A DNA stretch of 64,000 nt from Nevskia sp. (GTDB taxonomy: Bacteria > Pseudomonadota > Gammaproteobacteria > Nevskiales > Nevskiaceae): NCBI GenBank assembly GCA_021732745.1, contig JAKFUK010000003.1:1-64000 (forward strand), written 5' to 3'. Position numbers and translations under genes: made by a program. A model generated the notes under the pieces. It made no database searches, was not told the origin of the DNA, and worked only from the letters and a program-made list of their open reading frames with translations. Positions 38,134-49,356 of this stretch are shown here, piece after piece. The number at the start of each line of letters is the position of its first letter. The stretch's first letter is position 1.

Positions 38134-39138
38134 TTATAACGGCCGCTTGAAGGGATCGTCATCAGAAGTTGTGATCGCGTCCGTCTGCGGACCCGCATCG
38201 AGATGGCAGGCACGCCCTCTCCTCGCCTCGTCGATTCGCAGGATCGGTGCCAGTTCGCGGCATTGCGGCAGCACCTGTTCGCAACGCGGCGCGAACGCAC
38301 AGCCGGGCGGCCGGCGCGCCGGATCGGGCGGCTGGCCGGCGATGGTCGGCAGTCGCGCCGGTCGCGGGCCGCTCAGATTCGGGCGCGTGGCGAGCAGCGC
38401 TGCCGTGTACGGATGCCTCGGGTTCGCCAGCACTGCGGCCGTCGGCCCGGACTCGACGATCCGCCCGGCATACATCACCGCCATCCGCTCGCAATGCCCG
38501 GATACGACACCGAGATCGTGGGTGATCAGCAGCAGCGCCAGCCCCAGCTCGCGGCGCAGTTCGTCGAGCACCGCCAGCACCTCGGCCTGTACGGTGACAT
38601 CGAGGGCGGTGGTCGGCTCGTCGGCGATCAGCAATTCCGGCTTGGCCAGCAGCGCCATCGCGATCAGCACCCGCTGGCGCATGCCGCCGGAGAACTCGTG
38701 CGGGAACTGCGCGAGTCTTCGTCGGGGATCGGCGATCCTGACTGCGTCGAGCATCATTGCCGCTTCACGCAGTGCGTCGGCACGGCTCGCGCCGCGATGC
38801 TGTTCCAGCACTTCGGCCATCTGCACGCCGATGCTCAGATAAGGATTCAGGCTGCTCATCGGGTCCTGGAAGACCATCGAGATGCGGCTGCCGCGAAGCT
38901 GATCGAGCGCCGCCCTGCCCGCGCCGATCAGTTCCTGTTGCTCGAAACGGATCGAGCCTTCGATGTGTGCTGTCGCGGGCAGCAAGCCCAGCACGGCGAG
39001 CGCGGTCTGGCTCTTGCCGGAGCCGGATTCGCCGACCAGTCCCAGCGACTCGCCCTTGGCGATCGCGAAGCTGACGCCATCGAGCACGGTGACGGCGCGA
39101 TGGCGCACGCGCAGGTTTTCGACGCTCAGCACGCTCAT
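38134..39138 (-). CDS. Oligopeptide/dipeptide ABC transporter ATP-binding protein
   Basis: The 334-residue ATPase is of the OppD/DppD type: Walker A GESGSGKS near residue 36, Q-loop VFQDPMSSLNP, signature FSGGMRQR near 150, Walker B LLIADEP, and the C-terminal oligopeptide-transport extension with cysteines (GCAFAPRCEQVLPQC). It overlaps the permease gene by four bases. No OppF/DppF partner follows; the next gene downstream is petA. The transporter may use this ATPase as a homodimer or borrow a second from elsewhere. Confidence 0.9.
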   Translation of the reverse strand: MSVLSVENLRVRHRAVTVLDGVSFAIAKGESLGLVGESGSGKSQTALAVLGLLPATAHIEGSIRFEQQELIGAGRAALDQLRGSRISMVFQDPMSSLNPYLSIGVQMAEVLEQHRGASRADALREAAMMLDAVRIADPRRRLAQFPHEFSGGMRQRVLIAMALLAKPELLIADEPTTALDVTVQAEVLAVLDELRRELGLALLLITHDLGVVSGHCERMAVMYAGRIVESGPTAAVLANPRHPYTAALLATRPNLSGPRPARLPTIAGQPPDPARRPPGCAFAPRCEQVLPQCRELAPILRIDEARRGRACHLDAGPQTDAITTSDDDPFKRPL

Positions 39139-39956
39139 CGGCGCGGCTCGTCCAGGGCAGCGCGCAAGGCGTCACCGAGCAGATTGAAGGCCAGCAAAGT
39201 CAGCACCAGAAAGACGGCCGGAAAGATCAGCCCCCAGGGTGTGGCTTCCATCGCCCGCGCACCATCGTTGACCAACGCCCCCCAGCTGGTCGCCGGTTCC
39301 TGGATGCCCAGCCCCAGAAAGCTCAAGAAGGATTCGACCAGGATCGCCTGCGGAATGGTCAAGGTGGCGCAGACAATCACCACGCCGAGCAGGTTCGGCA
39401 GCACATGGCGAACCAGGATCGCGGCATTGCCGAGCCCGGACACGACCGCCGCATCGACAAATGGCTGGCGGCGCAGCGCCAGCGTCTGGCCGCGAACGAT
39501 GCGCGCCATGTCCAGCCAGCTGACCGCACCGATCGCCACGAAGATCAGCAGCCAGTGGCGGCCGAACAGCACCATCAGCAGGATCACGAAGAACATGAAC
39601 GGCAGCGCGTAGAGGATGTCGACGATGCGCATCATCACGGCATCAATTCGCCCGCCGAACCAGCCGGCCGTAGCCCCCCAGACGATACCGATCGCCAGCG
39701 ACACCAGGGTCGACACGAAGCCGACCGCCAGCGATAGCCGCCCGCCGACGCAGACTCGCGCGAACAGGTCGCGGCCGAGATCGTCGGTGCCGAAAATGTG
39801 CGCGGCACTCGGGGCGGCGCCCCAATCGGCATCGAAGTCGATGGCATCGAACGGTTGCGGTGCCAGCCAGGGGCCGACGACGGCGAGCAACACGATCAGC
39901 AGCAGGATTGCCGCCGGCACGGCGATCGCCGGACGTTTCAGCAGCGCTCCGCTCAT
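39135..39956 (-). CDS. Oligopeptide ABC transporter permease (OppC type)
   Basis: The 273-residue inner-membrane protein has the N-terminal membrane helix of OppC/DppC proteins, FGTDDLGRDLFARV, five further hydrophobic segments, and the ATPase-contacting EAA-like loop (AAVVSGLGNAAILVRHVLPN). The start at 39956 overlaps the preceding permease by four bases; the frame continues upstream only as a shadow of that gene. Confidence 0.92.
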   Translation of the reverse strand: MSGALLKRPAIAVPAAILLLIVLLAVVGPWLAPQPFDAIDFDADWGAAPSAAHIFGTDDLGRDLFARVCVGGRLSLAVGFVSTLVSLAIGIVWGATAGWFGGRIDAVMMRIVDILYALPFMFFVILLMVLFGRHWLLIFVAIGAVSWLDMARIVRGQTLALRRQPFVDAAVVSGLGNAAILVRHVLPNLLGVVIVCATLTIPQAILVESFLSFLGLGIQEPATSWGALVNDGARAMEATPWGLIFPAVFLVLTLLAFNLLGDALRAALDEPRR

Positions 39957-40870
39957 TCGAGCCGCGCCTGCGGATCGAGCGCGCCGTAAGCGAGATCGAC
40001 CAGAAAATTGAAGGCGATCACCAGCGCGCCGTAGAACAGCACCACGCCGAGCACCAAGGTGTAATCGCGATTCAGCGCGCCTTGAACAAAGTAGCGGCCG
40101 ATGCCGGGAATACCGAACACCTGCTCGACCACCACCGAGCCGGTCATCAAGCCCGCCGCCGCCGGGCCGAGCCACGAAACCACCGGCAGCAGCGCTGGTT
40201 TGAGTGCATGGCGGAACACGATCAGCCGCTCCGGCAGCCCCTTGGCGCGGGCGGTGCGAATCCAAGGCGCAGCCAGCACTTCGCCGAGCGCACCGCGAGT
40301 CAGCCTTGCGATGGCGGCCAGTTGCGGCAAGGCAAGTGCGACCGCCGGCAGCAGCACGGACGCTGGTCCGTCCCAGCCCCCGGCTGGCAGCCAGGGAAGC
40401 TGAAGCGCGAAGACCAGGATCAGCACCGGTGCCACGACATATGACGGCAGCGACAGCCCGACCAGCGCCAGCACCATGACGCTGCGGTCGAGCCAGCCGT
40501 CGCGGCGCATCGCCGCCAGCGCGCCGAGCGCAACACCGCCGATCAGGGCCAGCAGCAGCGCAGCAGCTCCGACCGCCGCCGACACCGGCGCGCCATCGGC
40601 GATCAGGCTGGCGACGCTGCGGCTTTCGTACTGCAACGATGGCCCCAGATCGCCTTGCACGAGACCGCCGAGATAGCGGCCGAACTGCATCCACGCCGGT
40701 TCGTCGAGATGGAACTGCGCGGCCAGCCGCGCCTCGATCTCCGGCGCCAGGCTGCGCTCGCTGTCGAACGGTCCGCCGGGCGCGGCATGCATCAGGAAAA
40801 AGCTCAAGCCGACGAGCACGAACAGCGTCGGCACCGCGGTCAGCAGGCGCATCGCCGCACGGTTCAGCAT
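39953..40870 (-). CDS. Oligopeptide ABC transporter permease (OppB type)
   Basis: The 305-residue protein has the OppB/DppB N-terminal helix (PTLFVLVGLSFFLMHAAPGG), about six membrane segments, and the EAA-like loop IRTARAKGLPERLIVFRHAL. PGIGRYFVQGALNRDY is typical near the C terminus. It lies 9 bp downstream of the binding-protein gene and overlaps the next permease by four bases. Confidence 0.93.
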   Translation of the reverse strand: MLNRAAMRLLTAVPTLFVLVGLSFFLMHAAPGGPFDSERSLAPEIEARLAAQFHLDEPAWMQFGRYLGGLVQGDLGPSLQYESRSVASLIADGAPVSAAVGAAALLLALIGGVALGALAAMRRDGWLDRSVMVLALVGLSLPSYVVAPVLILVFALQLPWLPAGGWDGPASVLLPAVALALPQLAAIARLTRGALGEVLAAPWIRTARAKGLPERLIVFRHALKPALLPVVSWLGPAAAGLMTGSVVVEQVFGIPGIGRYFVQGALNRDYTLVLGVVLFYGALVIAFNFLVDLAYGALDPQARLE

Positions 40871-40879
40871 CGTGTGATC

Positions 40880-42502
40880 TCAGCGCCCACTCAGCCGAAG
40901 ATCCTTCGAGTAATGCCAGTCGAGGATGTTGTCCTGCCAGCCTCCGACTCGCGGCTTGACCAGATGCTTGGAGGCATAGAAGTAGATCGGCAGGATCGGC
41001 GCGTCGTCGAGCATCTTCCGTTCGGCGGCTTCCAGCTTCGCCCGCCGCAGCGCCGGATCGCTCGCTTGCGCAGCTTCGAGCAGCAGCGCGTCATAGCCGG
41101 CATCGGCGTAGCCGGAATCGTTGCGCGGGTGGCGGCTGTCGAGGATCTCGGCGAAGCCCTGCGCGTCGTCGCTGTCGGCGATCCAGGTGTTGCGGAAGGC
41201 CTGGGTGTCGCGGCGCTCGCGGCGATGTCGCAGGAACACCTTCCACTCCTCGTTGACCAGCTTCACGTCCGCACCGAGCACCTGCTTCCACATCGCCGCG
41301 ATCACCACGGCAATCCGCTTGTGATCGTCCGACGTGTTGTAGCGAATCTCGACTTGCACCGGCTTGTCCGCCGAATAGCCGGCTGCCGCATACAGCCGCC
41401 GCGCTTCGGCTTCGCGCCGGGCACGCGGCCAGTGCGCCCATTCGGGAACCTGCGGCCTGTAGTCGCGAATGCCCGGCGGGATGTAGCTCCAGGCCGGTGT
41501 GGCGAGATCGTGCAGCACCTTGGTCGCGATCACCGGGCGGTCGATCGCCAGCGACAGCGCCTGCCGCAGCGGCTTGTTGCCGGCGAACGGCGGCCGCGTC
41601 AGGTTCAGGCCGTAGAAATAGCTGCCGAGATAAGTGGCGACATGCAGCTCGCCGCCGAGCGTGCGGCGAATCCAGTCGGCCTGCGTCGCCGGGATCGAGG
41701 TCGTGACATCGAGCTCACCGGCGCGGTAGCGCTTCAGTTCGGAGTTCAGATCCTCGGTCGGCAGGTAGATGAGCCTGTCGATCGCCGTCTGCCGATCGTT
41801 CCAGTAGGCGGGATTGCGCGCCAGCGCGATACGCGATTGCAAGACCCATTCTGTGAGCCGATAGGCACCGTTGCCGATCCTGGCGTCGGGCTTCGGCGGC
41901 CGCGCGAGGTCGGCAGGATGAATCGGCGACGCCGCCGGGTGCGCCAGCAGCGACAGCAGATTCGGCATCGGCCGGTCGAGACGAATGCTCAGCGTTCCGA
42001 CGTCATCGGCATGCAGGCCAAGCGCTGACGGCGGCAGTCGTCCGGCGATCACCTCGCTGCCGTGTTCGATGGCAGCAAACAGCTTGGCGTAACCGGAAGC
42101 CGTCGCCGGATCGAGCAGGCGGCGCAGGCCGGCGGCGTAATCACTGGCCGTCAGCGGATCGCCGTTGGACCAGCGCAGGCCTGCACGCAGGCTCAGGCGC
42201 AGCGCGCGACCGTCGTCCTGCCACTGCCAGGACGCCGCAGCGGCGGGAATGATGTCGCCGCTCGGCGAGACGCCGGTCAGCCCTTCGTAAAGATCGCGCA
42301 GCACATTGCCGGCACTGACGCCGGTCGCTTTCTGCGGGTCCAGCGATTCCGGCTCGGTGCCGTTGCCGATGACGAGCGTCTGCGGGTCGGCGGCGATTGC
42401 TGCACCGGCGAGTGCCGCGAGCGCGAACAGCCCCGCCCTGAGCGTGGCGAGCACGCCGGCCCGCTTATTTGAGGCGCCGAACCCTGAAGCGCGGCCCGCC
42501 AT
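40880..42502 (-). CDS. Oligopeptide-binding protein (SBP family 5)
   Basis: The 540-residue precursor is a periplasmic family-5 substrate-binding protein: GTEPESLDPQKATGVSAGNV at the mature N terminus, DGRALRLSLRAGLRWSNGDP, and EDLNSELKRYRAGELDV. It resembles OppA/MppA peptide binders. The signal peptide ends near AAIAAD. The ATG at 42502 overlaps the upstream gene by 38 bp; a GTG at 42454 would avoid the overlap and leave a neat signal sequence, so either start is possible. It heads the transport genes. Confidence 0.88.
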   Translation of the reverse strand: MAGRASGFGASNKRAGVLATLRAGLFALAALAGAAIAADPQTLVIGNGTEPESLDPQKATGVSAGNVLRDLYEGLTGVSPSGDIIPAAAASWQWQDDGRALRLSLRAGLRWSNGDPLTASDYAAGLRRLLDPATASGYAKLFAAIEHGSEVIAGRLPPSALGLHADDVGTLSIRLDRPMPNLLSLLAHPAASPIHPADLARPPKPDARIGNGAYRLTEWVLQSRIALARNPAYWNDRQTAIDRLIYLPTEDLNSELKRYRAGELDVTTSIPATQADWIRRTLGGELHVATYLGSYFYGLNLTRPPFAGNKPLRQALSLAIDRPVIATKVLHDLATPAWSYIPPGIRDYRPQVPEWAHWPRARREAEARRLYAAAGYSADKPVQVEIRYNTSDDHKRIAVVIAAMWKQVLGADVKLVNEEWKVFLRHRRERRDTQAFRNTWIADSDDAQGFAEILDSRHPRNDSGYADAGYDALLLEAAQASDPALRRAKLEAAERKMLDDAPILPIYFYASKHLVKPRVGGWQDNILDWHYSKDLRLSGR

Positions 42503-43067
42503 CGAGAATGCGCATCCAGTAGGAACCGATCAGGTTGCGATCGAGTTTGACCCTTGGATTGCTGCCGAAGTACTCGAATTCGCGGTCGTCGATGACGGTC
42601 CAGGTCTGGCCGTTGTCGAGCGGAAAAATCAAGCCGCGATAAACACCGTCAACATTGACGATGGCCTGCGCGGTGATTTCCTTCGGTTCCTGGGGCGCGG
42701 CCCTGGGAATCGCCACGGCACCGAAGTTGTCGACCGGGGCCGGAGCTGCTGGTGCAGCCGCCACTGGCGGTGCCGGTCGCGGCGGGGCGGACGGCATGGG
42801 TGCCACCTCGGTGACAGCAGGTGGCGCAATCGGCGGCGCCACGGCCGCGGGCGCGACAGGTGCCGGCGGCGCTGAAGCCGGCGCGCGGTCCAGCGCATCG
42901 AAGCAGCGCAGCCGCGCCGCGTTGTCAGTGATCGCGCGGCAACTCGCGAAATCCTGCCCGGCAGCCTGTGCAACGGGAATCATGCTGCCGGACAGCAACG
43001 CCAGCATCAGCAGATGCGCAGGCAAGCGGGCGCAGGCAGCAGCAGATCGAGTGGTGCGGAGCATCAT
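42465..43067 (-). CDS. Small secreted protein with C-x-x-I...RLRCFD motif, unknown function
   Basis: I do not recognise the gene by name. The 200-residue precursor has a signal peptide (ending VAQAAG) and the segment DFASCRAITDNAARLRCFDALD, a two-cysteine motif seen in assorted small periplasmic proteins. A Pro/Ala-rich linker of about 60 residues follows. The C-terminal domain of about 80 residues (GVYRGLIFPLDNGQTWTVIDD) looks like a small beta fold. GAGG precedes the ATG at 43067. Its end overlaps the binding-protein gene, so it may be co-transcribed with the transporter. Confidence 0.7.
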   Translation of the reverse strand: MMLRTTRSAAACARLPAHLLMLALLSGSMIPVAQAAGQDFASCRAITDNAARLRCFDALDRAPASAPPAPVAPAAVAPPIAPPAVTEVAPMPSAPPRPAPPVAAAPAAPAPVDNFGAVAIPRAAPQEPKEITAQAIVNVDGVYRGLIFPLDNGQTWTVIDDREFEYFGSNPRVKLDRNLIGSYWMRILDGGPRFRVRRLK

Positions 43068-43120
43068 CGAAAACCTCGGATTCGGGGCACGGCGCAAGCT
43101 GCCGCAGCGGTCAAACGAGT

Positions 43121-44332
43121 CTACAGGCTGCCATCCGGCACAGCGTCGTTGTAACGGTCCATCGCCGCCATGACGGCCGAAATCATCTCGCGTTCGGCAG
43201 TGCTCAGACGCGGGTTCCAGACATCGAAGATGAACACGTAGCGATCGTCATCACTATCGTTCCAGGCTTCGTGCTCGATGGTGTCGTCGAACACCCAGGC
43301 CTCACCTTCCCGCCATTGCCGCGTCTCGTTGCCGACCCGGAAACCGCAAGCCGGCGGCACGATCAGCGGCAGATGCACCACCAGCCGGACATTGGCGACC
43401 CCGGTATGCGGCGGAATGCGGGTGTGCGGTCGCAGCAGGGAAAACATGGCGGCCGGCATGCGGCCCGGGGCCTGTGGCTGCGGCAGATTCGCCAGCGCCG
43501 CCATGGTGATCGGGCAGCGCGCGGCATGATCGTCGACGCGCTGACCGCGATAGAACAGGTGGTAGGCGCTCCAGCGTGGCGAACGATTCAGCGCCGCCCA
43601 TTGGTCCAGCGGCACGCCGTCCGGATAGGCGATGTAGGGGGTGAAGTCGGCATCGCCGACCATGACTGCGCGAAGTTCATCGCGAATGTTCGCGGTTTCG
43701 GCTTCCAGTCCAGCCAGCCACGGGAAATCTTCGCGTGCGTGGAATTCGATCGCCGGCAATCCCGGGTAGCAGTAGTCGGTCGGCTGCTGGCTGTAGAGGC
43801 GGCGGGTGCCGAGTGTCGCGTCGATGAACAAGTCGATCCTTCGGCTTTCGATGTCCCCGGCAGCGGCTTGCCGTGCGCCGAGGTCCGCGCGGACGTGGCG
43901 GCCCAGGTCGGCGATATAGGCTTGATAAACCTGCTGCGCATGGCGCAGCGCGGCGTCGGTCGCGGCATCGACACGGCTGCCTTGCGGTGCCTGCGCGATC
44001 GCTCGTCCGTATTGCACCGCAGCGGCACGTTTCTGATCCATGCGTTCGAGCAGCGAGCCTTTCAGCAGCAGCCCGAGAAATGCTTTCGGCTCGAGCGCCA
44101 GTGCCGCATCCACCGATTGCAGGGCGGCCTTGATATCGCCGATCGCGCGCTGAACGCCAGCCAGGTTCAGCCAGAGTGGGACATCACGTAGGTCAAGTGC
44201 GGTCGCCGCGCGCAAGGCGTCGACGGCTTCGGCCGTCTGCCCCGCAGCGATCATCCGTCGCGCGTCCGCCTTCAGCGCCGCCAGTTGTCGCAGGCGATCC
44301 GGATCGTGGACGGCGGCAGGAATTTCGGTCAC
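43121..44332 (-). CDS. TPR-containing aspartyl/asparaginyl beta-hydroxylase (AspH family)
   Basis: The 403-residue protein has an N-terminal tetratricopeptide-like helical region (about 1-130, with WLNLAGVQRAIGDIKAALQ and FLGLLLKGSLLERMDQ). The C-terminal AspH domain is a 2-oxoglutarate/iron(II) oxygenase: metal histidines His309 (RIPPHTG) and His354 (TIEHEAWN) are 45 residues apart as in known AspH enzymes, with the RxxxHLP-type segment RLVVHLPLIVP between. No signal peptide is seen. It lies downstream of the TonB-dependent receptor on the same strand with a terminator between; a shared role is inferred. Confidence 0.87.
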   Translation of the reverse strand: MTEIPAAVHDPDRLRQLAALKADARRMIAAGQTAEAVDALRAATALDLRDVPLWLNLAGVQRAIGDIKAALQSVDAALALEPKAFLGLLLKGSLLERMDQKRAAAVQYGRAIAQAPQGSRVDAATDAALRHAQQVYQAYIADLGRHVRADLGARQAAAGDIESRRIDLFIDATLGTRRLYSQQPTDYCYPGLPAIEFHAREDFPWLAGLEAETANIRDELRAVMVGDADFTPYIAYPDGVPLDQWAALNRSPRWSAYHLFYRGQRVDDHAARCPITMAALANLPQPQAPGRMPAAMFSLLRPHTRIPPHTGVANVRLVVHLPLIVPPACGFRVGNETRQWREGEAWVFDDTIEHEAWNDSDDDRYVFIFDVWNPRLSTAEREMISAVMAAMDRYNDAVPDGSL

Positions 44333-44350
44333 GCAGGCATCTCGTCAGAT

Positions 44351-44386
44351 CAAAAAAAACGGCGGGTCAGTTGCCTGACCCGCCGT
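44351..44386 (-). terminator. Intrinsic terminator after the TonB-dependent receptor
   Basis: A perfect 12-bp stem (44359-44370 with 44375-44386) with a 4-nt loop is followed on the minus strand by an eight-T run. It lies 30 bp past the receptor stop and 19 bp before the AspH start, so AspH transcription would need read-through or its own promoter. Confidence 0.9.
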
Positions 44387-44415
44387 CATCTTAACGACTG
44401 CTGGTGCTGTGAAGC

Positions 44416-47400
44416 TTAGAACTCCAGCACGATGTTGGCGTACAGGAACCGACCCAGCGAGTCATAAACCTGCGGGAAGGTGTTGCCGTTGCCGACGACC
44501 GGCGGCAGGGTCGGGCCGCCGATGATCGGCGGATCGTTGTCGAGCAGGTTCTGCGCGCCGACACGGAAAGTGTAGGAGCCCGAGAACGTGATCGCTGCCG
44601 ACATGTCGAGATAGCTTTCCGCGCCAATGCGACGATCAAGATCGTTCGCCGTCGTTGCGGCGTCGGCACTGGCGTGGCCGATGTAGCGCCATGCCGCCGA
44701 CAGACGAACCTGGCTGTCGAGCAGCGCCGGCGTCGGCACCGCATAGGTGGCGCGGAAGCGGTGACGCCAGTTCGGCGACGGCACGCCGCACTGAACGCCA
44801 AAATTGCCGCCGCAGCTGAACGTCGACGTCGAGTCGCCCGGGATCGGAGTGACGTCGATTTCCAGCACGCGCGTGCCGACGATATCGAAGGTCACCGTAC
44901 CAGCCTGACTACCGAGGCCGAGATCGGCCAGGCGCAGACGGTAGTTCGCCGCGAGATCGATACCCTTCGAGGTCAGCTGACCGGTGTTCTGCGTGGTGTT
45001 GACCACGAAGCCGCCGTTGCCGATCCACAGGCTGCCGAAGGCTGGGCCGGCAGTGGCGTCACGCTGAATCAGGTTGCACAGCGCGCCGCGCTCGTAGCAG
45101 GCCTCGATGATGGTGTCGCCGCCGTAGCCGCCAATGAAACCATTGACTTCGATCGAATAGTAATCGAGCGAAATCGACAGATCCTTTACGAAGGTCGGCT
45201 GAAACACGAAGCCGCCGGTGTAGGTATCTGCCCGCTCCGAAGCCAGGCCCGGCGACGTGCCGAACTGGGCGTTGTACTGATCCGCCGGGTTCAGGAGAAT
45301 CGTGCCGTACAGGCCCGGGTTCGCCGCGATCAACGGATCCTGTGCGCACTGGGCGGCCGTTGCCGAAGCTTCGCCCACCTGCAGCGTCGCGTCGCCGTTG
45401 TTCGCCGTTCCCGCGCAGGGATCGGCGCTGACGCCCAAGCCCACGAAGGTCGGGTTGATGATTTCACCGATGTTCGGTGCGCGGACGGCGCGGTTGAAGC
45501 CACCACGGAAGCGGATGTCCTTCACCGGTGCCCATTCGCCGCTCACCTTGTAGGTGTCGGTCGACGAGGTCTGCGTGTAATCCGAGAAGCGATAGGCAGC
45601 TTCGATACCCAGCTTGTGGAAGCCCGGCTGGTTCTCGATCAGCGGAATGCTGATTTCAGCGAACAGTTCCTTGACCTGGAAGGCACCCGAGATCGGCAGC
45701 GTCGGCGCGCCCTGGCCGGCGAGATCGCCGGTCTGGAACGAGACGTCGGATTCCAGGAAAGCGGATTCACGACGGTATTCAGCACCGAAGGAGATGCCGA
45801 CGCCGTTCTCCGCAAACGGCGACTGCAAGCCGTATTCGCCGAGCAGACCCTGAATCGAGCCGGTGGCAACCTGCTGCGTGGTACCACCCACCTGCAAGCC
45901 GGGGACCTGAAGGTAGTTCAGGACCGCAGGGTCGACGCGCTGGCCATTGAACACGTTGAACGGCAAGCAGTTGGCGTCGGTGCCGTCGAGGACCGAACGG
46001 CAAACCGCATTGCCGGCACCGTCATCGACCACATCGAGGGCGCGGCGTGCACGGGTCAGTGAAAACTCGTTGCGGTAGATCTGCGAGTAGACCGTGGCAC
46101 CGTACTGGATCGAGGTGTCGTAGCTCCAGGCCTTTGCAAAGTCGCCCTTGACGCCAAACACGGCGCGATAGGCGGTGTAGCGCAGGTTGTTGTCGCGACC
46201 ACCGCCTTCGACGTTGCGGCGAAGCACGGCGATCGGCACCGGCGCGGTGCTTGCGCCGAACAGCTGCGTGCGCTGCAGATCGCTCAGCAGCGGGTTGTCC
46301 GGAGAAACGAACACGGTTTCACCGAAGACACCAGAAGGTGCGATGACGGCGTTGGTGCGGGTGTCGTTGAACAGCAGCTGCGTGTAGACATCCGCCGCGT
46401 CGTTGAACTTGTAGTGCGCAAAGCCGCCGAGGCCGTAGCGCTCCTGATTGCGCTGGAAGAAGTTGAACGGCGCGAAGTTGAATGCATCGGTCGCAGCGTT
46501 GTAGGCGCGGAATCCGCCGGTCGTGGTGTCGACCGTGAACAATGCCGGCAGACCCGGGGCACCACCGTTGATGAAGACCGACGGGAACGACGTCGCGGAA
46601 CCGCCGCAAAGGTAGCTCGAGCTGCCCGAATTGTTGAACGTGCAGGAGCTGAAATCGCGGCGATCCTGGGTGACCGGATCCAGCTGCAGGTAGTTCGCGA
46701 AAACGGTGGCGTTGCCCTTGCCGTCACCCGAATTCACGCCGAGGGTGATCGAAACGCTGTGACCCTGACCGTCGAACTGGTTCTCGTCCGGCAGCGGGAA
46801 ACCGCGGCGCTCGACGATCGCCGCCGAGGAATTGCTGTTCTTGTGCTGGTAGCCGCTGCGCTGATAGTCAATCTTGACGCCTTCAAAATCCTTGGTCAGC
46901 TGGAAGTTGACGACGCCGGCGATGGCGTCCGAACCGTAAACGGCCGAGGCACCACCGGTGAGCACTTCGATTCCTTCAATGAGCTGAGCCGGGATGAAGT
47001 TCAAATCCGCCGCGCTGCCGCCGATACCGCCGGCCTGCACGCGCTTGCCGTCGATCAGAACCAGGGTTCTGGCGGCACCGAGGTTGCGCAGGTCCGCCGT
47101 TGCGGTACCGTCCGAACCATTGGAAATATTGCCGCCCTGACCCGCGAAAAACGCAGGGTTGTTGTTCAGCAAGTCTTCGACGCGCGTCGTGCCCTGGAAC
47201 TTCAGTTCTTCCTTGCCGATCACCACAACCGGGCTGTTGCTGGTCAAGTTCGGCGACTTGATGCGCGAACCGGTGACCTGCACGCTGCCGAGCTGCTTGA
47301 CCTTGCCCGGATCTTCAGTGGTCTGGGCTACTTCTGTCGCCGCAGCCCCAGCCTGGGCGACTTCAACTTCCTGGGCGTACGCGTTGCCGGCAAGCGAACC

Positions 47401-47466
47401 GACACCAACGACGAACGCAAATCGCGCTGCTAGGCGCAGCCGACCGTCTGCACTCAAATTCATCAT
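44416..47466 (-). CDS. TonB-dependent outer-membrane receptor
   Basis: The 1016-residue precursor has a signal peptide (ending NAYAQ near 32), an N-terminal spacer, and a plug domain (about 60-190: QVTGSRIKSPNL, DLRNLGAARTLVLIDGKRV, GGASAVYGSDAIAGVVN). The long beta barrel ends with Phe (YANIVLEF). It belongs to the large receptors of Caulobacter/Xanthomonas type whose substrates are often oligosaccharides or peptides. Several cysteine pairs (for example CTFNN...YLCGG, CAGTANN, ACYERGALC) suggest disulfide-held loops. Upstream is a possible promoter (47547-47576); downstream a strong terminator and the AspH gene. Confidence 0.92.
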   Translation of the reverse strand: MMNLSADGRLRLAARFAFVVGVGSLAGNAYAQEVEVAQAGAAATEVAQTTEDPGKVKQLGSVQVTGSRIKSPNLTSNSPVVVIGKEELKFQGTTRVEDLLNNNPAFFAGQGGNISNGSDGTATADLRNLGAARTLVLIDGKRVQAGGIGGSAADLNFIPAQLIEGIEVLTGGASAVYGSDAIAGVVNFQLTKDFEGVKIDYQRSGYQHKNSNSSAAIVERRGFPLPDENQFDGQGHSVSITLGVNSGDGKGNATVFANYLQLDPVTQDRRDFSSCTFNNSGSSSYLCGGSATSFPSVFINGGAPGLPALFTVDTTTGGFRAYNAATDAFNFAPFNFFQRNQERYGLGGFAHYKFNDAADVYTQLLFNDTRTNAVIAPSGVFGETVFVSPDNPLLSDLQRTQLFGASTAPVPIAVLRRNVEGGGRDNNLRYTAYRAVFGVKGDFAKAWSYDTSIQYGATVYSQIYRNEFSLTRARRALDVVDDGAGNAVCRSVLDGTDANCLPFNVFNGQRVDPAVLNYLQVPGLQVGGTTQQVATGSIQGLLGEYGLQSPFAENGVGISFGAEYRRESAFLESDVSFQTGDLAGQGAPTLPISGAFQVKELFAEISIPLIENQPGFHKLGIEAAYRFSDYTQTSSTDTYKVSGEWAPVKDIRFRGGFNRAVRAPNIGEIINPTFVGLGVSADPCAGTANNGDATLQVGEASATAAQCAQDPLIAANPGLYGTILLNPADQYNAQFGTSPGLASERADTYTGGFVFQPTFVKDLSISLDYYSIEVNGFIGGYGGDTIIEACYERGALCNLIQRDATAGPAFGSLWIGNGGFVVNTTQNTGQLTSKGIDLAANYRLRLADLGLGSQAGTVTFDIVGTRVLEIDVTPIPGDSTSTFSCGGNFGVQCGVPSPNWRHRFRATYAVPTPALLDSQVRLSAAWRYIGHASADAATTANDLDRRIGAESYLDMSAAITFSGSYTFRVGAQNLLDNDPPIIGGPTLPPVVGNGNTFPQVYDSLGRFLYANIVLEF

Positions 47467-47823
47467 GGATTCTCCCTACGTTAAGTTCTTTTGACAGGCC
47501 GAGGGAACGAGTCTTCGCTCGCCGCATCGGATTTGTGACCATTTGAAGAATAGGCTTGCAGTCAAATCAACGTCAAGGAAATCAAGGTCAGTAGGGCCAT
47601 CAAGACCCATTCTTCGGGCTGAGCCTACAAGCGCAAAAGCTGTGCCATGAACGCCGAAGCTATCGTCGTAGGGCTGGCTCCCGATCAGGCGCCGATCGGC
47701 GAGAAACCAGTCAAATCAGCGCACTCACGCCGCTTCGACAATTTTCACCATCTCCTCGGGCTGCTGCATGCCTTCGCGACCACGGCTTCGGTCAAGCATG
47801 GAAGATTCAAATTTCTTGAAGCC
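47467..47823. other. Intergenic region between rplQ terminator and receptor
   Basis: No gene is supported. On the minus strand a 23-codon frame with ATG near 47792 ends ...GMQQPEEMVKIVEAA before a stop; it may be a leftover C terminus or chance. The rest holds the receptor's putative promoter and leader with the GGGAG ribosome binding site. Confidence 0.4.
47547..47576 (-). promoter_or_regulatory. Possible sigma-70 promoter of the TonB-dependent receptor
   Basis: On the minus strand TTGACG (47576-47571) and TATTCT (47552-47547) are 18 bp apart. This gives a leader of about 75 bp before the receptor start. Only the sequence match supports it. Confidence 0.4.
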
Positions 47824-47857
47824 AAAAACAAAAAAGAGCGCCGAAGCGCTCTTTTTT
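47824..47857 (-). terminator. Intrinsic terminator after rplQ
   Basis: The stem 47830-47841 with 47846-47857 closes a TTCG tetraloop (minus strand) and is followed by a T-rich run. It ends the alpha operon, 17 bp past the rplQ stop. Confidence 0.92.
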
Positions 47858-47873
47858 TACATCTCACCAGTGA

Positions 47874-48269
47874 TCAGGCGTCGCCGCCTTCTCCTGCTGC
47901 CGACGACCCGGCCGGGCGATCCACCAACTCGACATACGCCATAGGCGCGTTGTCGCCGGGACGGAAGCCGCAGCGCAGAATGCGAAGATAGCCGCCCGGA
48001 CGCGCCGAATAACGCGGTCCCAATTCCAGAAACAGCTTCTGAGTCATCGGACGATCGCGCAGGCGATTGAACACGATGCGGCGATTGGCAACGCTGTCTG
48101 CCTTCGCCCGGGTGATCAACGGCTCGGCGACGCGGCGAAGCTCCTTCGCCTTCGGCACCGTGGTGCGGATCAGCTCATGCTGGAACAGGGACACGGCCAT
48201 GTTCTGCATGTCGGCCTTGCGGTGGCTGGTGGTACGGCCGAGACGGCGGCCTGCGACTTTATGGCGCAT
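47874..48269 (-). CDS. rplQ: Ribosomal protein L17 (bL17)
   Basis: The 131-residue protein has the L17 opening [19 protein letters not shown] and [22 protein letters not shown]; the last about 12 residues form a Gly/Ala/Glu tail. It is the last gene of the alpha operon and is followed by a strong terminator. A 100-bp gap filled with GTGGCTAGTG-type repeats separates it from rpoA. Confidence 0.97.
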
Positions 48270-48284
48270 GTTTTAACTCTGTTA

Positions 48285-48364
48285 TCAGTGGCTAGTGGCC
48301 GATGGCCAGTTCGCTCGGTTTGTTTGACTAGCACTAACCACGGGTCACTGACCAATGGTCACAG
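48285..48364. repeat. CAGTGGCTAGTG-type repeat, rplQ-rpoA gap
   Basis: Units CAGTGGCTAGTGG, GATGGCCAGT on the left and their inverse CACTAACCA, GTCACTGACCA, TGGTCAC on the right form an imperfect inverted arrangement that fills most of the gap. The same units recur at 49374-49404, 53163-53187, 56347-56400 and 57659-57739. Confidence 0.75.
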
Positions 48365-48369
48365 GTTCT

Positions 48370-49356
48370 TCAGGCAGCGACCTTCGGCGACGACCAGTTG
48401 TCGAGCTTCATGCCGAGTTCAAGCTCATGCGACTTGAGCGCTTCCTTGATCTCGTTCAGCGACTTCTTGCCAAGATTCGGCGTCTTCATCAGCTCGGTTT
48501 CGCCACGCTGCACGAGATCGCCGATGTAATAGACGTTTTCGGCCTTGAGGCAGTTGGTCGAACGCACACCGAGCTCCAGATCGTCGATCGGACGGAACAG
48601 GATCGGATTCAGATCCGGCTTGCCCGGCTTGCTGATGCTCTCTTCCTCGCCTTCGGCGAAGTCGACGAACACCGCGAGCTGATCACGCAGGATGCGGGCC
48701 GCAAAACGAACCGCATCACCGGCGTCAATACCGCCGTTGGTGTCGACATCGAGAATCAGCTTGTCCAGATCGGTGCGCTGTTCGACACGCGCGCGCTCGA
48801 CCGAATAGCTCACCCGGCGAACCGGGCTGTAAGAAGCATCGAGCTGCAGCGAACCGATCGCCGATCCTTCGTCTTCGTTGTTCTGGGCGCGAGCAGCCGC
48901 CGGCTGGTAGCCGCGACCACGCGTGACCTTCAAGGTCATGCTGATCTTGCCGCCCGTGAGGTTGGCGATGACCATTTCCGGATTGACGATTTCGACATCG
49001 TGGTCGAGCTGGATATCGGCAGCCGTGATCGGGCCCTTGCCGCTTTTCTCGAGCTTGAGCACCGCCGAATCCCGCGCGTTCATGCGAACCGCGATGTTCT
49101 TGATGTTCAGCAGAATGTCGATGACATCTTCCTGCACGCCTTCGATCGCGCTGTACTCGTGCACCACACCGTCGATCTGCGCTTCGGTCACTGCTGCGCC
49201 GGGAACCGACGACAGCAGAATCCTCCGCAGGGCATTGCCGAGCGTGTGGCCGAAGCCGCGCTCAAGCGGTTCAAGCGTGATCCGGGAACGATGAGCGGAA
49301 ATCTGCTCGACATCGACGACGCGCGGCTTCAGAAAATTGGCGACGGAACCCTGCAT
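48370..49356 (-). CDS. rpoA: RNA polymerase alpha subunit
   Basis: The 328-residue subunit has the N-terminal dimerisation domain ([25 protein letters not shown] in shorter form: [14 protein letters not shown]), a Gly/Ser/Glu linker, and the C-terminal DNA/activator-binding domain ([31 protein letters not shown]). The ATG at 49356 is used because GAGGTG stands upstream and the family starts MQGSV. A 112-bp gap with repeats separates it from rpsD. Confidence 0.98.

What the first reader, a model, noticed from the sequence alone, without database searches (positions are those of the whole stretch)
43121..47466. TonB-dependent receptor paired with a TPR-AspH oxygenase
A 1016-residue receptor with cysteine-paired loops is followed by a 2-oxoglutarate oxygenase of AspH type joined to tetratricopeptide repeats. 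The histidine pair (309 and 354) keeps AspH spacing. The oxygenase lacks a signal peptide, so it would act in the cytoplasm, either on an imported ligand or on a protein bound by its TPR part. A strong terminator between the genes argues for differential expression rather than no link.
Basis: partly seen in the sequence, partly recalled or inferred. Interest (0 to 1): 0.55.

Follow-up and report, generated by a model that had tools for sequence, protein, structure and literature searches.

The report
Receptor paired with its own hydroxylase
A bacterial outer-membrane nutrient receptor travels through evolution together with a cytoplasmic enzyme built like the human protein hydroxylase AspH, which suggests that the bacterium chemically edits this receptor, or what it imports.

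Summary
In detail: a 1016-aa TonB-dependent receptor (44416-47466, -) is followed by a 403-aa TPR + AspH-fold oxygenase (43121-44332, -), with a 13-pair terminator between. The pairing is not chance. Of 79 TPR-AspH loci from alpha-, beta- and gammaproteobacteria, 62 hold a receptor in the held flank, 59 within 5 kb; 53 of 60 pairs fall in one receptor clade. In the window's own genus, receptor and enzyme swap together between constant flanking genes: two genomes keep rplQ-receptor-small protein-opp but have a foreign receptor and no enzyme. 59 of 79 loci carry further sulfotransferase, AspH or other 2-oxoglutarate oxygenase genes. The enzyme has human AspH architecture and an intact iron/2-oxoglutarate site, but the residues that grip the substrate aspartate in human AspH (Lys666, Arg688) are replaced by uncharged ones in 89 of 89 sequences, so aspartate hydroxylation is unlikely. 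Best reading: a receptor-dedicated, TPR-guided cytoplasmic peptide hydroxylase, most likely acting on the receptor precursor; modification of the imported ligand is the main rival. No substrate is shown. The terminator is a general trait of these receptor genes. New variant of a known kind.

The parts
44416..47466 (-). TonB-dependent receptor, 1016 aa, clade I (five conserved Cys pairs)
   Evidence: Pfam Plug + barrel over cut-off; clade trees; Cys conservation
44358..44387 (-). intrinsic terminator, 13-pair stem, then six T; directly after the receptor and about 20 bases before the enzyme start
   Evidence: hairpins of this kind after 11 of 11 receptors whose next same-strand gene is AspH-like and in 18 of 18 hand-picked gaps, three of them without the enzyme
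43121..44332 (-). TPR + AspH-fold 2-oxoglutarate oxygenase, 403 aa, GTG start; the only PF05118 match in the genome held
42465..43097 (-). small secreted protein (CYSP): signal-like N-terminus, Cys - R-L-x-Cys-[FY]-D motif, Pro/Ala linker, C-terminal small beta-barrel; longest ORF, start uncertain
   Evidence: HMM matches in 36 of 79 loci; alignment A3; model pLDDT 78.6; no Pfam family over cut-off
40880..42502 (-). OppA-type peptide-binding protein (SBP_bac_5)
   Evidence: 251.7 bits
39953..40870 (-). OppB-type permease
39135..39960 (-). OppC-type permease (approximate extent inside ORF 39135-40694)
   Evidence: position and similarity to relatives' loci; not scanned against Pfam
38134..39138 (-). 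OppD-type ABC ATPase
   Evidence: read from sequence and similarity to relatives' loci; not scanned against Pfam
47547..47576 (-). sigma-70-like promoter of the receptor (TTGACG-18-TATTCT), alignable in six loci with and without the enzyme
   Evidence: one search found as many promoter-like sites as shuffles give, so conservation is the argument
47631..47647 (-). TGGCAC-N5-TTGCGC element, sigma-54-like, conserved in the six aligned upstream regions
   Evidence: sigma-54 consensus recalled

Best explanation
The enzyme is a dedicated accessory of one clade of TonB-dependent receptors. It is a cytoplasmic Fe(II)/2-oxoglutarate peptide hydroxylase whose TPR arm holds an unfolded polypeptide while the oxygenase domain hydroxylates a residue that is probably not aspartate. 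Its most likely substrate is the receptor precursor itself, before export by Sec; at many other loci sulfotransferases and further oxygenases would add other marks, so that receptor loops carry modifications suited to the ligand. The receptor probably serves peptide uptake together with the Opp importer encoded behind it. Shown: conserved linkage, co-inheritance and cassette swapping of receptor and enzyme; fold; conserved Fe/2OG residues; loss of the Asp-binding residues; company of other modifying enzymes. Inferred: peptide substrate, receptor as substrate, peptide ligand. My step-wise odds: functional link 0.85, non-aspartate target 0.65, receptor as substrate 0.45.
For: (1) 62 of 79 TPR-AspH loci hold a receptor matching my profile in the held flank, 29 within 1 kb and 59 within 5 kb; 857 plug matches in 72.3 Mb of 12 host genomes would give roughly 7% and 17% (my estimate). 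(2) 53 of 60 pairs (59 within 3 kb, one at 5.3 kb) have a receptor of one clade, against 7 of 20 receptors lying further off in the same loci; node support 0.999 and 0.983; distances correlate at r=0.755, 0 of 2000 permutations. (3) Cassette swap at one locus: G005 and G016 keep rpsD 99/96% and OppB 89/82% but have receptors of 31/33% identity from another clade and no enzyme; G010 keeps rpsD 96%, rpoA 94%, OppB 81% but has receptor 26% and enzyme 35%. (4) Co-occurrence in 61 genomes: both 10, enzyme only 1, receptor only 3, neither 47; Fisher p=3e-8, kinship not corrected. (5) 12 of the 17 loci without a near receptor, plus L089, were followed into their genomes: 13 of 13 encode a receptor closest to clade I elsewhere, 11 clearly, G080 a fragment, G076 only at 35% identity. 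(6) 59 of 79 loci carry another sulfotransferase, AspH or other 2OG oxygenase gene, 40 a sulfotransferase. (7) Fe/2OG residues and Arg686 are kept in 89 of 89, Lys666 and Arg688 are lost.
Against: No substrate is shown. 17 of 79 loci have no such receptor in the held flank, 10 of them with full 10-kb flanks. Clade-I receptors exist without the enzyme: in G049 no modifying enzyme was recognised in the fetched 20 kb, in G043 only a weak TPR match, and in G004 another 2OG oxygenase is next to it. These receptors lost no residue that marks a target: their deviations from conserved columns (6, 6, 3) lie inside the range of enzyme-linked ones (median 4, max 13, n 58). Cassette swapping fits a ligand-modifying enzyme equally well. 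Seven of 60 pairs have receptors outside the clade. Point (5) has no control with enzyme-free genomes of the same groups. The profile that found receptors was built from linked receptors of relatives, which favours clade I.
Confidence: 0.45

Rival explanations
1. The enzyme hydroxylates the imported ligand (a peptide) in the cytoplasm after uptake by receptor and Opp, as a first step of its use.
For: Opp genes follow the enzyme in the window, and at least two Opp-like genes lie in 12 of 79 loci in three proteobacterial classes; genes that I read as TonB and ExbD lie in 7 and 6 loci; receptor and enzyme swap together while Opp stays, as expected if the ligand changes.
Against: Sulfotransferases, in 40 of 79 loci, spend PAPS (recalled) and make little sense in catabolism; the same opp locus exists without the enzyme in G005 and G016.
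Confidence: 0.25
2. The enzymes build a secreted peptide or metal-binding compound whose re-uptake is the receptor's task, as in methanobactin clusters (receptor + sulfotransferase + MATE exporter; recalled).
For: Oxygenases and sulfotransferases beside a receptor; a protein that I take for a MATE transporter (read by eye, not scanned) in 4 of 79 loci.
Against: Little room for a precursor gene between the window's genes; the upstream gap aligns mainly in the terminator and promoter blocks; I saw no exporter beside the window pair. Short ORFs were not searched systematically.
Confidence: 0.12
3. The enzyme modifies the adjacent small secreted Cys protein (CYSP) or OppA.
For: CYSP is in 36 of 79 loci, within 100 bp of the query enzyme in 13 of the 33 copies listed; Asp67 after the second Cys is invariant in 38 of 38.
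Against: CYSP and OppA persist at the same locus in G005 and G016 without the enzyme; the motif resembles the start of VasI (weak), so it is not special to this family; 43 of 79 loci lack CYSP in the held stretch.
Confidence: 0.08
4. It is a lipid hydroxylase of OlsC/LpxO type that merely sits beside the receptor.
For: Best NCBIfam matches are OlsC (92.8 bits) and LpxO (55.3 bits).
Against: Far under both cut-offs (450, 500); TPR arm; 14 of 14 single-domain PF05118 relatives keep Arg688 and lack Arg686, the reverse of the TPR family; best fold match is human AspH.
Confidence: 0.05
5. Chance or hitch-hiking neighbourhood without functional link.
For: Receptor genes are abundant and one clade may simply keep its surroundings; part of the distance correlation is shared species history.
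Against: Cassette swap, co-occurrence, and receptor presence in trans when unlinked.
Confidence: 0.05

Closest known systems
Human aspartate/asparagine beta-hydroxylase AspH (5apa, 5jqy)
   Same: TPR + oxygenase order; oxygenase domain Z 23.5, rmsd 2.1 over 188 residues; two-His iron site; Ser668, His690, Arg735 and Arg686 equivalents
   Different: No signal or membrane part seen; Lys666, Arg688 and Gln627 equivalents replaced; genetic partner is an outer-membrane receptor, not EGF domains
OlsC / LpxO lipid hydroxylases (PF05118)
   Same: Same domain family
   Different: Far under NCBIfam cut-offs; 14 single-domain PF05118 proteins of relatives show the opposite pattern at the Arg686/Arg688 positions (whether these are OlsC or LpxO was not tested)
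PiuA-PiuC receptor/2OG-oxygenase pair of Pseudomonas (recalled, not tested)
   Same: A TonB-dependent receptor next to a 2OG oxygenase
   Different: PiuC belongs to another oxygenase family without TPR (recalled)
Methanobactin operons (recalled; PMC3621798 seen only in a search listing)
   Same: Receptor grouped with a sulfotransferase and tailoring enzymes
   Different: No precursor peptide gene or exporter seen beside the window pair

Membership tests
Pfam PF05118 Asp_Arg_Hydrox | score over the gathering cut-off | tested here: met
   154.5 against 22.6 bits
AspH-type protein Asp/Asn beta-hydroxylase | TPR domain N-terminal to the oxygenase domain | tested here: met
   AlphaFold model and PDB comparison
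AspH-type protein Asp/Asn beta-hydroxylase | two-His iron site and 2OG-binding Ser668, His690, Arg735 | tested here: met
   89 of 89 sequences
AspH-type protein Asp/Asn beta-hydroxylase | Lys666 and Arg688, placed to salt-bridge the substrate Asp (PMC6817910, passages seen) | tested here: not met
   Lys666 -> M/F/L/I/V/Y and Arg688 -> V/T/L/I in 89 of 89
AspH-type protein Asp/Asn beta-hydroxylase | hydroxylation of Asp/Asn in EGF-like domains with a Cys3-4 disulfide | not testable with these tools
   needs an enzyme assay
OlsC / LpxO | NCBIfam equivalog cut-off | tested here: not met
   92.8 of 450 and 55.3 of 500 bits
TonB-dependent receptor | Plug and beta-barrel domains over cut-off | tested here: met
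   73.4 (cut-off 23.9) and 87.4 (cut-off 27) bits
Named receptor families (BtuB, FepA, CirA, FecA and others) and SusC/RagA | NCBIfam cut-off | tested here: not met
   BtuB 86 of 836 bits; SusC/RagA 23.5 of 368 bits; each of the 21 families listed is under its cut-off
Oligopeptide ABC importer Opp (genes behind the enzyme) | SBP_bac_5 and permease domains over Pfam cut-off | tested here: met
   OppA 251.7 bits, OppB 124 bits; by NCBIfam OppA is under its cut-off (418.1 of 947) and OppB just under (375.9 of 388)

The most novel reading that the evidence does not exclude
Proteobacteria have a cytoplasmic system that chemically edits TonB-dependent receptors before export: interchangeable TPR- or Sel1-guided hydroxylases and sulfotransferases, swapped together with the receptor as cassettes, which write a receptor-specific set of residue modifications in the loops that bind the ligand.
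Probability: 0.4. Interest if true: 0.88.

Novelty: new variant of a known kind. Interest (0 to 1): 0.62.

Why it matters
TonB-dependent receptors are numerous outer-membrane proteins (857 plug matches in 12 host genomes), and I know of no enzymatic modification of them (recalled; eight paper searches ran, several with capped listings, and what was listed showed nothing on this link). A clade of receptors that is co-inherited across three classes with an AspH-like hydroxylase, often with sulfotransferases as well, makes that possibility directly testable by mass spectrometry in named isolates such as Caulobacter ginsengisoli, Duganella sp. CF517 or Roseateles toxinivorans. It would also show what bacterial TPR-AspH enzymes are for, and that the AspH fold was retuned to a non-aspartate target.

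Tried and rejected
Docking motif: a receptor signal region like M(K/N)LSx(D/E)G(K/R)LRxA is shared, with variation, by 14 of the 15 linked receptors of relatives read, but linked receptors of other lineages have other N-termini, and the enzyme-free receptors of G005 and G016 keep it; rejected as an enzyme docking site. Target residue by loss: Pro502 is P in 61 of 62 clade-I receptors at enzyme loci (one gap) and Val in the two enzyme-free receptors of G043/G049; those two are near-identical, so this is one event, and Pro is also in 17 of 26 outside the clade; no evidence. Terminator as special regulation of the pair: it is a general feature of these receptor genes. Regulatory RNA: four Rfam matches at E up to 1 in 42000-48500, none near its gathering score. 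Fold of CYSP: only weak matches, Z up to 3.7. Plasmids: 37 records match the enzyme, 4 over at least 80% of it, best 52.3% identity. Literature: one search required only one of its terms and so listed 5 of 8,837 TonB papers, which says nothing about PF05118; some searches listed 10 of 38, 15 of 91 and 10 of 50. No preprints and few subscription papers are held.

Rows dropped and limits: the 79 loci hold duplicate organisms (L076, L077, L078, L081 and L084 match genomes also reached as G015, G008, G007, G013 and G036; L112/L122 and L090/L154 share a genome); they were not removed from the counts. Two of 79 loci had no ORF covering 60% of the match and are missing from the 89-sequence enzyme set, which is 77 loci, 11 loci of relatives and the window. 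Receptors under 750 aa among the 79 loci were left out of the trees; of the window genome's other receptors 17 were placed. In the co-occurrence table, the window genome is one of the 61; five genomes with only distant enzymes (G006, G010, G012, G017, G035, 34-37% identity) count as 'neither', and so do G005 (41% over the first 386 residues only) and G016 (37%), whose receptors the tree puts outside clade I; in most genomes no more than 13 receptor candidates were scored. 12 of the 17 receptor-less loci were followed into their genomes; L081, L094, L096, L107 and L128 were not. At least one receptor-less locus (L085) holds a receptor-like gene of another type about 7 kb off that my profile missed (read by eye). 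Gene calling in the loci was by a simple rule of my own, so starts are uncertain and short genes can be missed.
Full report
WHAT IS THERE. On the - strand the window holds, in this order: ribosomal genes, a receptor gene (44416-47466), a terminator (44358-44387), a TPR-AspH gene (43121-44332), a gene for a small secreted protein (42465-43097, here called CYSP) and opp peptide-importer genes (OppA 40880-42502, OppB 39953-40870, then OppC- and OppD-type genes). The enzyme gene starts about 20 bases after the terminator's T run, which leaves no room for a promoter between them. In one search no other terminator-like site with more than a 5-pair stem lies between the enzyme and position 40000, so enzyme, CYSP and opp may form one unit fed by read-through (inference). 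Close relatives of the window are deposited as Nevskia and Nevskiaceae MAGs. The genome held has one PF05118 match, 24 plug-domain matches, two sulfotransferase (PF13469) and two PF13759 matches.

THE ENZYME. AlphaFold gives a confident model (mean pLDDT 90.4). Its best solved relatives are the human AspH structures: oxygenase domain 5apa, Z 23.5, rmsd 2.1 over 188 residues, 34% identity; the full TPR-oxygenase chains also lead the list, but with rmsd near 14, which I read as a different domain angle. TPR plus AspH is therefore the human architecture and not new in itself. Mapping through the phmmer alignment: Ser668, His679, Arg686, His690, His725 and Arg735 of human AspH correspond to Ser298, His309, Arg316, His320, His354 and Arg364, and are kept in 89 of 89 TPR-AspH sequences. 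The human structure paper (PMC6817910, passages seen) says that Arg735 and Ser668 bind one end of the 2-oxoglutarate analogue and His690 and Arg688 the other, that the substrate Asp is placed to salt-bridge Arg688 and Lys666, and that Arg686 is placed to bond the substrate backbone. Lys666 is M, F, L, I, V or Y and Arg688 is V, T, L or I in 89 of 89; Gln627 is A, T, G, S or I. As control, 14 of 14 single-domain PF05118 proteins of relatives keep Arg688 and lack both Arg686 and Lys666. So the TPR branch has its own signature: iron and 2-oxoglutarate residues and backbone grip kept, acid grip lost. Because Arg688 also touches the 2-oxoglutarate analogue in the human enzyme, co-substrate binding must differ somewhat too. 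I infer a peptide substrate with a non-acidic target.

THE PAIRING. In 61 genomes (the window's and 60 relatives) the full-length enzyme (41% identity or more) and a clade-I receptor (about 40% or more over most of its length) occur together in 10, enzyme alone in 1 (G013, whose enzyme lies near a contig start), receptor alone in 3, neither in 47 (Fisher p=3e-8, kinship not corrected; borderline cases are told under Tried and rejected). A scan of genome contigs with the enzyme alignment gave 79 loci in alpha-, beta- and gammaproteobacteria. 62 of 79 hold a receptor matching my profile in the held flank: 29 within 1 kb, 30 at 1-5 kb, 3 at 5-10 kb (one of these, L089, of another receptor type); 17 have none, of which 10 have full flanks. 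In 12 host genomes there are 857 plug matches in 72.3 Mb, one per 84 kb, so roughly 7% and 17% would be expected within 1 and 5 kb. Twelve of the 17 receptor-less loci, plus L089, were followed into their genomes: 13 of 13 encode a receptor closest to clade I elsewhere, 11 clearly, G080 only a fragment beside its other enzyme copy, G076 only at 35% identity; no enzyme-free control was run for these groups.

CO-INHERITANCE. In a tree of 99 receptors, most of those near the enzyme, from three classes, group together, and the 17 other receptors of the window genome that were placed lie outside. Of 60 pairs (59 with the receptor within 3 kb, L042 at 5.3 kb) 53 have a receptor of that clade and 7 do not; of 20 receptors lying further off in the same loci 7 are in the clade. 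Five of the seven exceptions form a second receptor group whose enzymes are also a separate branch (support 1.0). Pairwise distances of enzyme and receptor correlate at 0.755; none of 2000 permutations reached this; part of this is shared species history.

THE NATURAL EXPERIMENT. At the locus rplQ - receptor - (enzyme) - CYSP - opp, flanking identity to the window tells the species distance. G011 and G015: OppB 92%, receptor 72/74%, enzyme 71%. G005: rpsD 99%, OppB 89%, but receptor 31% and no enzyme. G016: rpsD 96%, OppB 82%, receptor 33%, no enzyme; G002 at the same OppB distance (82%) has receptor 50% (over 638 residues; its gene is split) and enzyme 56%. G010: rpsD 96%, OppB 81%, receptor 26%, enzyme 35%, plus a TPR-sulfotransferase. 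The receptors of G005 and G016 group (support 1.0) with receptors of Duganella and Pseudoduganella genomes outside clade I. So receptor and enzyme are exchanged together while opp stays, and CYSP stays in G005 and G016, which ties the enzyme to the receptor (or to its ligand) rather than to CYSP or Opp.

COMPANY. Beside the query enzyme, 59 of 79 loci hold another sulfotransferase, AspH, 2OG-Fe_Oxy_5 or P4H-type gene by my domain profiles; a sulfotransferase is in 40 loci (68 genes). Ten neighbours from the relatives' loci (not from the 79) were scanned with Pfam: four TPR-sulfotransferases, two TPR-2OG-Fe_Oxy_5, one weak Sel1 + 2OG oxygenase, one AspH-sulfotransferase fusion, one lone 2OG oxygenase and one lone sulfotransferase. 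At least two Opp-like genes lie in 12 of 79 loci: five gammaproteobacterial (Nevskia kin), four alphaproteobacterial and three betaproteobacterial; TonB and ExbD genes (named by eye) lie in 7 and 6 betaproteobacterial loci. This points to peptide uptake (inference).

AGAINST. Three clade-I receptors have no TPR-AspH: for G049 no modifying enzyme was recognised in the fetched 20 kb, for G043 only a weak TPR match, and that of G004 sits beside another 2OG oxygenase. Enzyme-free receptors show no special residue loss. Nothing here shows hydroxylation of anything.

TERMINATOR. Of 11 receptors among the 79 loci whose next same-strand gene is AspH-like, 11 are followed by a strong hairpin with a T tail, but so are 59 of 74 receptor genes in general, against 49 of 620 other genes. 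It fits a highly expressed receptor followed by low-level partners and is not specific to the pair.

VERDICT. I put functional coupling at 0.85, a non-aspartate target at 0.65, and the receptor precursor as substrate at 0.45. The paper searches that ran (open-licence PMC papers only, several listings capped) listed nothing on a TonB-dependent receptor with an AspH-type enzyme beyond one comparative-genome paper that holds both phrases (PMC10040529, listing only), so novelty is provisional.

Noticed in passing
window 47631-47647 and 47547-47576: Two conserved promoter-like elements upstream of the receptor: TGGCAC-N5-TTGCGC (sigma-54-like, consensus recalled) and TTGACG-18-TATTCT (sigma-70-like), alignable in six loci with and without the enzyme.
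   Followed up: partly
window 42465-43097 and 36 of 79 loci: CYSP, a small secreted family without a Pfam match over cut-off: Cys helix hairpin weakly like the start of VasI plus a small C-terminal barrel.
   Followed up: partly
L110:7246-8349 and five other loci: A family near TPR-AspH loci (6 of 79) whose scanned member is a retropepsin-like aspartyl protease.
   Followed up: no
L043:13079-14932: A natural fusion of an AspH-type domain with a sulfotransferase in one protein; my domain profiles recognised none in the 79 loci.
   Followed up: no
L098: A MAG labelled Klebsiella pneumoniae carries a locus very like that of an uncultured proteobacterium (L095), with near-identical receptors; the label is probably wrong.
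   Followed up: no
L036:6057-9130: The receptor of G002 is split into two ORFs (403 and 622 aa); frameshift or assembly error not resolved.
   Followed up: no
L037:14022-14912: A transposase-like gene (read by eye) lies between rplQ and the receptor in G025, so the locus is open to insertion.
   Followed up: no
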